Source of the DNA: Nannobrachium achirus
Taxonomy: Eukaryota; Chordata; Actinopteri; Myctophiformes; Myctophidae
Length of the DNA: 64,000 nt
Assembly: GCA_963921795.1 (NCBI GenBank)
Contig: OY997653.1
Location: forward strand, 61,462,701-61,526,700
Reading direction: 5' to 3'
Positions 1-62,235 of this stretch are shown here, piece after piece (the first letter of the stretch is position 1; each line of letters opens with the position of its first letter). The position numbers were made by a program, and so were the translations under genes. The notes beneath the pieces were generated by a model that ran no database searches, was not told the origin of the DNA, and worked only from the letters and a program-made list of their open reading frames with translations.

Positions 1-1115
1 GTCCATAATACGGTCTTATACAGGTTTTAACCTAAACAACCACTCAGATATTGAAATGTAATGTTCTGTCTGTCTCTAATTCCAAGCCGTTTCAGATGCA
101 ATACTAAAATGTCCTTTGTTGACAGTGGGGCGCTGTCTTTGGGCTGAAATTGGAACGATACAAAGAATATTAGAGAACCACGATGAGAACCATGTAGAGT
201 CAATTGTAATCTTCTCTGTATCGTTCCAATTTTTAGCACCACTTTACCTCATATGTATAGTCTCAATAGAATATAGCCTTCTCGAGGGAATATAGAATAT
301 AGCCTTCTCGAGGGAATATAGAATATAGCCTTCTCGAGGGGGCCCAATAGGAAATGAGCCCCCTGTGATATAGAATGGGGCCCAATTTCAAAAGAGTACC
401 GTTCAGACACGCCCATTCAGAAAATCACTGAAATGAAAGGCAAGGCTTAGAGTTAATGAATTGTTTTTTTTGGGCTGGAAGACCAAAAAACAAGAAAAAA
501 ATGTAAAATTTGAAATTCTTGGTGGTTGCCCCTTTAAACCCTCTATGCTTTTAAACTCAACTCTGTACTTGGTCCGATACGTGAGTAGAAGCTTGTAGAG
601 CGGCTATTTTTGCCCGAACGTACGCCCCCGGAATAGGGGAGCAGTGGTTCATGTGGTTGGAATCACACCAGATGCAAATGTTCTGATTCGGCGCTCGTCA
701 CTCGCTGCTGTGGCTCTATTTTACTGCTGGGAGGGGGAGAACGGCCATGAAAGGGTTGCTTTATTTTTAGTCCCCCCCCCCTCACCCACACCGCCCCGCC
801 CCCAGGGCCCAAATCTAACGGTTGGATTAGCAGGACACACTGTGGCTCCTTCAGAGTTTTACCTGCGCTGGAATTTGAGGTTTGGCTCAGACCAGAGAAA
901 TATTCACCTTCCTGCTGCATCCCCCTTCCTCCCCCATCCTCCCCCATCCGCCCCCACAAACACACACTTTTATGTGACATGAATGATGACTATATAAAAT
1001 GAAATTCCTGCCCTTATTACCCGCCTACGAACACACACGCACACACACAGTCACACACACACACAATGACTAAGCCGAACCTTTGCCATCACTTGACGAT
1101 TCAACAGCTTCTTAC
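1..1115. other. thbs1 intron 15 (partial), repeats only
   Basis: No exon seen. It holds an imperfect inverted repeat near 153-229 (ends ATTGGAACGATAC / GTATCGTTCCAAT), a 26-bp unit repeated three times at about 268-340, half of the recurrent hairpin module at 583-617, C-rich simple sequence at 770-960 and a CA stretch at 1026-1066. Confidence 0.7.
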
Positions 1116-1223
1116 CCTGTCATCAGGAATGCCATCGTTGTCGTCATCATCGTCACAAGCGTCTCCGATGCCGTCCTTATCGTAGTCTTCCTGCCCCGAG
1201 TTGGGGAGGTTGGGGCAGTTGTC
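1116..1223 (-). CDS. thbs1: thbs1 exon 15: first type 3 calcium-binding repeats (last exon in window)
   Basis: 108 nt encoding [20 protein letters not shown] then [16 protein letters not shown]. It has the DxDxDG-type aspartate-rich calcium-binding pattern of the TSP wire domain. Acceptor CCAG|GAC, donor AGG|GTAAGA, phase 0. The next exon would begin with another DNCP and lies outside the window. Confidence 0.97.
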
Positions 1224-4200
1224 CTGGAGGAGAGAGAAACACCAGGTTAGGTGTAACGTGTCACAGTCAGACATTGTAACAGACATACCGTATCATTTAT
1301 ATTGTGTAAAGCGCATTTAACCATTAACCCTCAATGACATGCTTTGGCCTGCTGGCTTTACCTTCATGAATATACAATATGAAATACTGTCTCTGTCTGA
1401 CTCTCCTTAGTCTCTCGATTACAGACTTCCGCATTACTGCAAAAGAGCGACCAAACTTTTCCTTGCGGATGGCTATCCAGATTGGACTCTCCTAGACTTA
1501 ACTCAGACCTACAGTAAAAGGCTCTGGAGCTCTAAAACCTGGCCATACCACTAACTACATAGTAACTTTACACCACTGCCACTAACTACAGTATCTACCT
1601 TCTTGCAACTACGGTATCTAATATGTAGTGGGGTAAAAAAGTGCAATGTTTGCCTCTGAGTTGTAGTGGAGTAGAAGTATAAAGTATTGAAAAATGGAAA
1701 CACTCAAGTAAAGTAAATATACCTAACACCTGTACCTAAGTACCCTACTTCAGTGGTTCTCAACCTGTGGGTTGGAACCCCAAGGGGGTCCCCAAATTAT
1801 TTTGCGGGGTCCCCAGATGATTAACTTAATGTGCAACATTGTTTCCTCACTCAACAGTAAACAAACCAACATAAGGTTTAAGCGTATAGAGGGGTAACTG
1901 CACATTTCTAAAGTGACAATTGAAGGACTTTTTAATACCTCTAAAATGGCAAATTAAACATTGGCCAAATTGTCAAATATTAGAGGCAGAAATTGTGAAA
2001 ATAGCCGATCTAAATGCATGTAGATCTGCTCACACATTTTGTATAACACGGTTGTGTTATACAAAATGTAATGCCTCAACTGTTAGTGCTCGTCAGGGTT
2101 CCCAGTTAAAATAGGATTATTTTGGGGGTCACGGCCTGAAAAGTTTGACAACCACTGCCCTACTTGAGTAAATGCACCATTGGTAGCTACCTTCTTGCAG
2201 TGGTAGGTGGCGTTCTGGTACGTACCTTCTTGCAGTGGTAGGTGGCGTTCTCCACACACACCAGGTCAGCGTTGGGCCACCCGTCCAGGTCGGTGTCCTC
2301 CCCACAGATGTGCCCGTTCCCGGCGTAGCCGGGCTTGCACTCGCAGCGGAACATGGGGTCAGCGAACTGTCCCAGGTAGTTGCAGCGGGCGTTCTTGTTG
2401 CAGTCGTGGCTTCCGTCCAGGCAAGGGTTGCGGGGCGAACACACCTGGAAGATGAAGAGGGAGGAGGAGGAGAGGAGAGGGACGATGAGTTGTTTGAGCG
2501 ATTGTTCTCGGAGGGTTCAGAACCAGAGCATTCTCTTCTTGGCTCTGAGAGGAAGACCCATTGATCAAAACATGAAGGAGCGTGTCAGGCACTGTGTCAG
2601 GTTTCTATCTGTCAACCACTGTGTAAACTAGGCCTGGGCAATACGACTTCATGTTGGTAGGATGATTATTTCAAACTTTTGCCTCGATTACGATTATTGA
2701 ACGATTCTTATTTATTAAATAGTGAAAATAACACATCTACAAGCTCACAATGTGTAACTTGTGATGCTACGCGTTTCTGACGGATCTTGTAGACTGGCTA
2801 TTTTCGCCACCATTGTTCAACAGAGTATAATACAGGGCTTGAGGGGGTTCCAGACGGTACGCGGTCACCGCCTCCTAGTCATTCATTTTCAATGGGAGGC
2901 GGGCAGCTATTTTGGCCGCGCAGAGAATTTGAAAGGTGGCGAGGCGAGCGGGCGCAGTCCTGTGAAATCCCCGCGAGCGTGCTCGTTCGTGCATGTGCAC
3001 GTGCGCGGCAAGAGATGGATTGTGTTCATCTTTGTGAAATACCGCGTGGTGTTTACTCACTGAGCGAGTTGTGTCTGTGTTTGTGTCTCACCGTGGCGCG
3101 GCCGCCGCTGATACTAGCGGGAGCCCCTGCGGCAACCGCTGCTCATCTGAAGAGCCCTTTATAGTGGTTAATCAATTTAATTGATGGACACTGATGGCTC
3201 CATAGACAAGACAAAGACGGATAGACAAACAGACAGTACATACCTGTTTCTTAGCAGCAGCCTCCTCCACTCCCTTGCCAAAGGGCTGCGGTCCAGAGTA
3301 GCGTGGCGGGCAGGGCAGGCAGTTGTACCCAGGGTTGGTGTTCTCACAGCGGTGGGCGCCGTTGAACTCAAAGCAGGCGTCGGGGACCTCTTTACACTGT
3401 TTATGTGTTCACAAACCATAGAGTGCAGATGTCACAAAGTGGAAGATAAATACATAAAAATCATACGAATAAACAAATGTTTTGAAAGTGTTAAGAAATC
3501 TCACCTCGTCAATGTCCTTGCATTTGATGCCGTTACCGGTGTAGCCAGCGGGACACTTCCCACACTTCCAAGAACCGTCGGGTAAGCTGGTGCACTTGGC
3601 TCCAGCGAAGCAGGGGTTGGACAGACACCCGTCTGAAAACAAGAATATTATATTAATGCATCCTGAGTGTTATATGATCTAAACAAAGAGTCTCAGGAAA
3701 GATAGGTGACGTTTCCATGAAGCCGTTTTTTGCGCATTAAGGCTTTTGCGCATAAATCTTTTAATGGAAACACCTGAAAAAAATCGAGTCTTCATTTTTT
3801 GCAAAAACACTTTTAACGCTTGGAGGGCGGATTTTGGGGCTTAATCGGAAAAACTAAATGCGCAAAAGTGCAATGGAAACACTAAGCAAATAGCTTTTGA
3901 ATTAAAACGCATTGAAATCGCAGGAAGGGGTGCTGGGGGGGGGGGGGGGGGCAGCCAGCCGCCTCTAATTCCAACACCGGGCCAGAAAGATACTGTCACA
4001 GAACTGCTTATTTCATGAACTATCTCCCAAGAATCGCCTTTGATCAGTGGATGAAAACAGACAAAATGCGCATTTTCTTTTTTTGAATTTCTGATGATTT
4101 GCTTCCTATTTTCGAAAAAGATTTATTGAAACGCAACTATAGAGATCTACTAAAGACTCTTAAGTCCGGGAAAAATGGGGGTGAACGTGGATTCGCCTGA

Positions 4201-61645: not shown

Positions 61646-61703
61646 ACTCTCCCCCTGCCGGCTGGCTAGGGGGAGGAGGTAGTATAGAAACCAGGACTAC
61701 TGT
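61628..61703. repeat. palindrome at the right edge of the 37-bp array
   Basis: The last unit GTAGTCCTGGTTTC is followed after about 45 bp by its reverse complement GAAACCAGGACTAC (61687-61700), with an inner CTCCCCCTGCCGG / CTAGGGGGAGGAG stem. Confidence 0.85.
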
Positions 61704-61854
61704 ATGTTTTTGTGAGGGCATCTACCCTAGGACACACGGGGAGAACATGCAAACTCCACACAGAAAGGCCTTATCGCCAACCCCACCTAGGGTGTGGGCG
61801 CTGATGACGCGGAGGGAGGAACACGCCCCCAGCGCCCACAGCGGAACTGCATGT

Positions 61855-62235
61855 TTTTCAGGCCAAGGACCCCCTAGTTGAATAGGTATTGGGGGTCCCT
61901 GCTTCATCTCTCTCTCAGCCTGAGAGAGAGAGATGAAGCAGGGAACCCCACTATACAGTATATTGTATAAAATTGTGTTGCAGATTAAACCTTTTCATAG
62001 ATTTCATAGACTTGTTTAACACATAGACTGTAACAGCACTATCATCAGTGTTGTGTTGATTTCACGTTGATACGCATAGTCAGACATTTAACCATGTTAA
62101 CCGTCAATACATATTAAACTTGACCTTTCACTCTTTGAAAGGTCAACCTCTTTGGATTGCCAAAAATAGCCGATCTACAAGCTATTTTCTGAGGACCCCC
62201 TAGGGGTCCCTGACCCCCTGTTGAAGATCCCTGCA
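61855..62235 (+). mobile_element. MITE family C, degraded copy
   Basis: TTTTTCAGGCCAAGGACCCC at the left and CTGTTGAAGATCCCTG at the right. It includes a local palindrome of CTGCTTCATCTCTCTCTCAG / CTGAGAGAGAGAGATGAAGC. The hairpin module is reduced to 62160-62190. Confidence 0.7.

What the first reader, a model, noticed from the sequence alone, without database searches (positions are those of the whole stretch)
583..62190. One palindromic hairpin module shared by at least eight unrelated repeat families
A stem of about 60-75 bp with arm core AAAATAGCAGATCTACAAGC recurs roughly 50 times across the window: twice in each family A MITE, once in families B, C, E, F, G and I, and as half-stems in J and elsewhere. 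Outside the module these families share no obvious sequence and have different termini. Seen directly: it is always internal. Inferred: either the module is itself a mobile palindrome that entered many MITEs, or the MITEs captured it from a common source. I know of no named element with this description, but that was not searched.
Basis: partly seen in the sequence, partly recalled or inferred. Interest (0 to 1): 0.82.

Follow-up and report, generated by a model that had tools for sequence, protein, structure and literature searches.

The report
DNA hairpin shared by unrelated transposons
A roughly 73-letter DNA hairpin, with more than sixty thousand intact copies in this 1.66-billion-base genome, sits inside many otherwise unlike small jumping genes, and its two halves change together between families, which suggests that the folded shape mattered while those elements were still jumping.

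Summary
The window has 47 module places (32 with both arms) in at least eight host families. Genome-wide there are 62,360 intact hairpins with exact 11-nt arms and 237,633 exact 17-nt arms; reversed control patterns give 0. Host ends differ: eight host types show terminal repeats with 8-of-8 target duplications, as in hAT transposons; one host (B) has other ends. Host flanks mostly do not align. So one module was acquired by many hosts, and it groups largely by host in a tree.

New here: the arms change together. Between five family consensuses 9 of 13 stem differences are paired; among private changes of 45 copies only 7 of 94 are (p=2e-6). At one position 34,514 copies match and 252 do not. 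Pairing was kept in source lineages and lost in copies, which favours selection on the fold during amplification over blind repair, but proves neither.

Own mobility of the module is not shown: hairpin-less copies are mostly ragged deletions. The one full-length hAT partner identified lacks the module. Capture and function are inferred.

The parts
57072..57144 (.). best-preserved hairpin module (family D copy): 38-bp uninterrupted stem at 57069-57147, 3-nt loop
57002..57454 (+). family D host, hAT-like ends CAGGGACGTGCAGAGA, target duplication 7 of 8
6304..6988 (+). family D host, one arm left (6386)
15917..16348 (+). family D host, shortened hairpin 15987-16043
42863..43398 (+). family D host, hairpin remnant 42936-42975, target duplication 7 of 8
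50751..51020 (+). family D fragment with one arm (50768)
7244..7766 (+). family A host with module places 7320-7380 and 7657; target duplication 8 of 8 in a GA-rich stretch
8072..8575 (+). family A copy with hairpins 8093-8158 and 8514-8564
9495..10031 (+). family A copy with hairpins 9516-9588 and 9944-10016
15141..15613 (+). family A copy with one hairpin, 15213-15285
23770..24258 (+). family A copy with hairpins 23843-23916 and 24123-24176
24587..25013 (+). family A copy with short hairpins 24633-24672 and 24878-24922
36272..36835 (+). family A copy with hairpins 36350-36413 and 36668-36742
40943..41417 (+). family A copy with arms at 41084 and 41300
53205..53801 (-). family A host with hairpins 53296-53346 and 53601-53653; target duplication 7 of 8
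57675..58154 (+). family A host with hairpins 57749-57799 and 57996-58068; target duplication TATGGCAC 8 of 8
5151..5401 (+). family B host with hairpin 5233-5305
9192..9456 (-). family B host with hairpin 9301-9373
16781..17343 (-). host H (ends CAGGGACGTGCTGG) containing B at 16922-17186 with hairpin 17031-17103
32349..32608 (+). family B host with hairpin 32425-32495
41859..42425 (+). host H containing B at 42019-42283 with hairpin 42098-42170
54397..55695 (-). interrupted family F copy (arm at 54396), with family B at 55035-55265 (hairpin 55118-55168) and a tandem array inside
14406..14786 (+). family C host with hairpin 14530-14589
34261..34661 (+). family C host with hairpin 34372-34444; target duplication CACATAAG 8 of 8
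62840..63069 (+). family C copy that has lost the hairpin by an inexact deletion
23234..23604 (+). family E copy with shortened hairpin 23387-23445
30996..31381 (+). family E host with one arm (31223); 8 of 8 duplication CTCTATGC, ambiguous because it lies beside a tandem array with that word
37497..37963 (-). family E copy with hairpin 37613-37682
43633..44064 (+). family E copy that has lost the hairpin by an inexact deletion
56281..56751 (-). family E copy with hairpin 56441-56522
62033..62233 (+). family E remnant with one arm (62163); right end read by eye
1751..2157 (+). family F host with short hairpin at 1998-2036; target duplication CCCTACTT 8 of 8
12718..13119 (+). family F copy with hairpin 12916-12989
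45573..46023 (+). family F host with hairpin 45812-45884; terminal repeat 16 of 16, target duplication GTCTAAGG 8 of 8
20629..20909 (.). family G copy, one arm (20635); ends not fully delimited
35648..35800 (.). family G fragment, one arm (35648)
48561..48873 (.). family G copy with hairpin remnant 48770-48817
49776..50202 (.). family P copy with one arm (49953)
583..611 (-). single arm, host not assigned
2724..2805 (.). decayed hairpin, host not assigned

Best explanation
A single homologous hairpin module (about 73 nt: two arms of about 34 nt and a 3-nt loop) has become cargo inside many non-autonomous, mostly hAT-like MITE families. Shown: host ends and flanks differ while the module is the same; most host families keep their own version of it; arm changes between families are mostly paired while changes in single copies are mostly not; copies lose the hairpin by ragged deletion; the one full-length hAT relative of family E that was identified has no module. 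Inferred: hosts captured it during faulty repair of excised or broken elements (a template jump into another MITE), and the fold was kept in source copies because it helped those copies to amplify or persist, either as folded single-stranded DNA during excision, replication or repair, or as a hairpin RNA. Once a copy stopped moving, its two arms decayed independently.
For: 62,360 strict hairpins and 237,633 exact arms, reversed controls 0. Eight host end types with 8-of-8 target duplications; flanks fall into 29 groups plus 40 singles. E copies share only their outer 66 and 70 bases with a 3,878-bp hAT that has no module. Host labels on the module tree need 19 changes, least possible 11, shuffled mean 51.2. 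Covariation: 66 doubly changed cells against 26.8 in shuffles and 6-24 in slid pairings. Consensus level 9 paired and 4 one-sided, copy level 7 paired and 87 single, p=1.7e-6. Position 11: 34,514 matched and 252 one-sided; position 13: 14,043 matched, 222 one-sided, with 479 doubly changed where independence gives 24. Arms of one copy are no more alike than arms of different copies of that family, as expected if dead copies are not corrected.
Against: No functional test. Source lineages may be long, so rare template switching could also give paired changes. The copy-level count rests on 45 hairpins of 5 families, mostly picked by a pattern that fixes 11 positions; copies and families are not independent events. 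In one search the number of pair types is not above shuffles (26 against 25.6). Stem position -1 is unpaired in most families (25 of 53 paired), and family A of the window has a one-sided difference (GATATAC against GATCTAC) that the consensus does not show. Two B copies in H (L092, L096) share a second deletion and lack the hairpin, so a hairpin-less lineage may have been copied. E, G, O and P do not form single branches in the tree.
Confidence: 0.5

Rival explanations
1. Neutral passenger: no benefit from the fold. Template switching inside the hairpin copies one arm onto the other, which makes paired changes, longer palindromes and deletions by mutation alone.
For: L019, an E copy, has its right flank replaced by an inverted copy of its left flank, extending the palindrome by about 65 nt. 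Palindromy beyond the core is above the cross-family null: mean score 4.9 in 81 hairpins against 1.9 in 368 pairs. PMC8794818 (outline and abstract seen) proposes that template switching creates and maintains stems.
Against: A mutational process should correct dead copies too, but within-copy arms are no more alike than between copies and private changes are 7 paired, 87 single.
Confidence: 0.3
2. The palindrome is itself a small mobile element that inserted into many MITEs.
For: In B the exact hairpin-less junction AAACTACTTTT recurs at 8 listed places; B, C and O hairpins are flanked by TAGTG...CACTA, as a TA or CTA target would give. Ten of 113 hairpins had no flank partner on either side; one of these later matched P.
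Against: E, D, F, G, K and P flanks do not show TA at the stem base. Of 100 hairpin-short E copies 95 have distinct junctions and 86 keep arm pieces. The 8 B places fall in several B subtypes, as expected from recurrent slippage between direct repeats. No module-encoded protein or enzyme was seen or searched for.
Confidence: 0.12
3. Ordinary common descent: one old MITE family whose flanks and ends have diverged beyond recognition while the hairpin stayed alike.
For: E and M share about 100 bp around the hairpin at 82%; B and O share a few bases outside the core.
Against: Left arms of different families are 79% alike on average (range 71-88%, copy against copy) while flanks do not align, and host ends differ; the ends of E match a hAT without the module.
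Confidence: 0.05

Closest known systems
Highly conserved domains of SINEs, and the V domain captured by the MITE MER6 (PMC6887750, outline and abstract seen; the rest recalled)
   Same: A short conserved internal module shared by transposon families with different ends; in MER6 a MITE carrying a domain from another element.
   Different: Here the module is a near-perfect palindrome with paired changes, and its hosts are DNA-transposon MITEs, at least eight host types, not SINEs.
hAT MITEs (terminal repeats and 8-bp target duplication; recalled definition)
   Same: The hosts A, C, E, F, K, O, H and an L031 type show both features.
   Different: The shared internal hairpin is not part of the definition and is absent from the E-type hAT L084.
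Angel and other foldback or palindromic MITEs of fish (recalled, no paper read)
   Same: Small elements able to fold into hairpins; hairpin-driven amplification has been proposed for them.
   Different: There the palindrome is the element with its ends; here it is internal and shared by hosts with different ends.
Rickettsia palindromic elements and mitochondrial double-hairpin elements (recalled; listings only)
   Same: Short palindromes that recur inside unrelated surroundings.
   Different: Other genomes and hosts; mobility of the palindrome is proposed there and not supported here.
Hairpins made and kept by template switching (PMC8794818, outline and abstract seen)
   Same: Paired changes, palindrome extension and deletion.
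   Different: That work concerns RNA genes; here arms of dead copies do not look corrected.

Membership tests
hAT MITE (hosts A, C, E, F, K, O, H, L031 type) | 8-bp target duplication with inverted terminal repeats | tested here: met
   8 of 8 duplications; no shuffled control was run for these scans; K is the weakest (terminal repeat 10 of 14)
hAT MITE (host D) | 8-bp target duplication with inverted terminal repeats | tested here: inconclusive
   7 of 8 in two copies
hAT MITE (host E) | ends shared with an element coding a hAT transposase | tested here: met
   PF05699 match with a 633-aa open frame; 14 of 14 terminal repeat and exact duplication; both ends matched in 8 of 10 E stretches, one end in 1, none in 1
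hAT MITE (host B) | 8-bp target duplication | tested here: not met
   ends ATATCGTCGTTGTCGGG with about 4 repeated bases, read by eye from 19 copies
hAT MITE (hosts G, P) | both ends and target duplication | tested here: inconclusive
   ends not delimited
independently mobile palindrome | clean empty sites and target duplication of its own | tested here: inconclusive
   not met in E; one recurrent exact junction in B with another explanation
microRNA or other Rfam family | score at the curated cut-off | tested here: not met
   none over cut-off in the window; below cut-off mir-3145 50.2 bits against 98 and mir-30 33.5 against 50.2 on one hairpin
functional RNA hairpin | transcription and small RNAs from the stem | not testable with these tools
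   no RNA data
SINE with a conserved domain | Pol III promoter head and LINE-like tail | not tested
   not searched; hosts have DNA-transposon ends
foldback or palindromic MITE | the palindrome includes the ends of the element | tested here: not met
   module internal in every host with known ends

The most novel reading that the evidence does not exclude
The hairpin is a structure-bearing module, selected at the level of transposons, that raises the amplification of hAT-like MITEs that capture it: a DNA-transposon counterpart of the shared central domains of SINEs, under pairing selection in source copies only.
Probability: 0.35. Interest if true: 0.85.

Novelty: new variant of a known kind. 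Interest (0 to 1): 0.68.

Why it matters
Why some MITEs reach huge numbers without coding for anything is an open question. Here one small structured module recurs in at least 11 host flank types and tens of thousands of intact copies, with the paired-change signature usually taken as the mark of a functional stem, seen between source lineages but hardly in dead copies. That makes a benefit at the level of the transposon directly testable, and offers a natural record of how palindromes of about 75 bp form, extend and are deleted in a large genome.

Tried and rejected
Chance: rejected. Module elsewhere: 0 in prokaryote genomes, no match in plasmids; viral contigs gave 0, then 5 matches to an 18-letter pattern with no palindrome in the stretch printed, then 1 match not examined. 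Rfam: none over cut-off. Homogenisation of arms within copies: tested, not seen. Module as part of an autonomous hAT: of four hAT loci read, only L084 showed ends with a duplication, and its element has no module at up to 5 mismatches; a decayed arm lies outside it; L085 has a module in a neighbouring E MITE; L086 and L087 have none. A search of the own genome with the whole hairpin as DNA gave nothing because very common words are skipped. Papers: nine full-text searches listed nothing that I recognised as describing such a module; only listings were seen for all but two papers, most subscription papers are not held, and the species was not known, so this is weak evidence of novelty.

Errors mended: one search's family table is misaligned for rows with window copies (A, D, F) and was not used.
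Full report
What is there. The arm core is found 77 times with up to 4 mismatches; I grouped the arms by eye into 47 places (list), 32 of them with two arms (list). A full hairpin has arms of about 34 nt around a 3-nt loop; the longest uninterrupted stem is 38 bp. A 23-letter arm pattern gives 55 matches against 0.00 in 100 shuffles. Covariance model R1, made from 14 hairpins, returns 72 rows on the two strands, all at known places.

How common. The window lies in a held genome of 1.6585 Gb in 564 contigs. 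The strict hairpin pattern has 62,360 places and the exact 17-nt arm 118,570+119,063; the reversed control patterns have none. The window holds 22 exact arms against a genome mean of 9.2 per 64 kb, and 4 strict hairpins against 2.4. These counts are floors, since decayed arms are not counted.

Hosts. Self-comparison and alignment of the window delimit A to G; P was added from C1 loci. Terminal repeats with 8-of-8 target duplications were found for A, C, E and F in the window and for E, K, O, H and an L031 type on C1; D has 7 of 8. No shuffled control was run for those scans. H and the L031 type carry B inside. B has other ends, about 4 repeated bases, and several surroundings in 19 copies. From 60 fetched stretches and 17 of the 18 search loci (L022 overlaps L021 and was dropped), 81 hairpins plus 32 of the window were grouped by the 150 bases on either side: 29 flank groups of two or more and 40 single flanks. 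I read these as at least 11 host flank types (A, B, C, D, E with M, F, G, K, O, P, Q); N is uncertain because it shares a flank group with D. In 10 of 113 hairpins neither flank had a partner; they may be rare hosts or free modules, and one (L051) later matched P.

The hAT partner. PF05699 gave 150 scored matches out of 1,653 candidates in the genome. Four loci were read. L084 holds a 3,878-bp element with E's terminal repeat, an exact 8-bp duplication and, a 633-aa open frame; it has no module at up to 5 mismatches and no exact 16-nt inverted repeat. In 8 of 10 E stretches compared, both outer ends (up to 66 and 70 bases) match it and the inside does not; one stretch matched at one end and one at neither. 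So in E the module came with internal DNA not found in this hAT. One element was identified; other autonomous copies may differ.

Pairing. On 16 window hairpins 89.2% of cells pair, 16 of 40 pairs have changes on both sides, and 66 cells are doubly changed (shuffled mean 26.8; slid pairings 6-24), while the number of pair types is not above shuffles (26 against 25.6). On 53 distinct C1 hairpins many variable positions covary, and position -1 is the least paired of the stem core (25 of 53, as expected by chance). Genome counts in exact arm contexts: position 13, A/A 13,564, T/T 479, one-sided 222; position 11, T/T 13,564, A/A 20,950, one-sided 252. Because families share ancestry these counts show paired inheritance, not thousands of events. 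The informative contrast is between levels: relative to E, the consensuses of A, B, G and K differ by 9 paired and 4 one-sided changes, while private changes in 45 copies (39 from C1, 6 from the window) are 7 paired and 87 single (Fisher p=1.7e-6; C, D and F left out as having under three usable rows). The window's A copies have a further one-sided difference, which the consensus hides. The arms of one copy are no more alike than arms of different copies of the family in B, A and F.

Inheritance. A tree of 83 hairpins (71 columns) needs 19 changes of host label (least possible 11, shuffled mean 51.2, as low in 0 of 200), with A, B and Q each on one branch; most forks are unresolved and E (6 changes), G (5), O (3) and P (2) are scattered. 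I read this as one or a few gains per host followed by amplification with the host.

Loss and extension. E has 302 copies with a short gap and 4,196 with a hairpin-size gap; other gap sizes were not counted. Of 100 short ones typed in from the listing, 95 are distinct and 86 keep at least 4 nt of an arm core. B has 188 short copies; 8 of the listed ones share the junction AAACTACTTTT. Fetched, these lie in several B subtypes (L090 and L091 are duplicates of each other; L092 and L096 share a second deletion and the H surroundings). This fits recurrent slippage between CTA repeats, and a hairpin-less lineage may have been copied. L019 shows the opposite event, a flank replaced by an inverted copy of the other flank.

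Reading. Shared cargo with a single origin is well supported. Pairing kept in sources and lost in copies is what selection during amplification predicts; low-rate template switching in long source lineages could mimic it. How the module entered hosts is inferred from general knowledge (recalled) that hAT excision leaves breaks whose repair can insert foreign sequence. No step here tests function.

Literature. PMC6887750 and PMC8794818 were seen as outline and abstract; all other papers as listings only. Angel elements, Rickettsia palindromic elements, mitochondrial double hairpins, the definition of hAT MITEs and SINE domains beyond PMC6887750 are recalled.

Noticed in passing
window 38506-38818, 44943-45519 and 35819-36043: Other long inverted repeats without the module: arms of 148 nt (97%, 17 nt apart), 181 nt (96%, 215 nt apart) and 108 nt (89%, 9 nt apart).
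   Followed up: no
stem position -1 (base before GATC) in the hairpins: A C against A difference between the arms recurs at this position in the B, E, G and K consensuses and only 25 of 53 hairpins pair there, although neighbours pair; a conserved mismatch or an old asymmetry.
   Followed up: partly
family B in H, in an F copy, in the L031 type and other surroundings: B is a second-level shared cargo: the same roughly 245-bp unit with its own hairpin recurs inside several larger MITEs.
   Followed up: partly
L006-L009 (C1:25219-36118) and C1:2320801-2508105: Near-identical hairpin copies repeat at intervals: four K copies 2-3 kb apart and ten E copies with the same listed sequence, which look like local duplications.
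   Followed up: no
window 27144-28795, 28878-29937, 59095-61644 and others: Large tandem arrays with units of 29-37 bases, up to about 68 copies; 64 rows in all.
   Followed up: no
E copies with left flank CCTATTTG (listing): An E subfamily that mostly shows the double change CTCTCAAC / GTTGAGAG, so a paired change seems to have happened inside one host family; read from the listing, not counted.
   Followed up: partly
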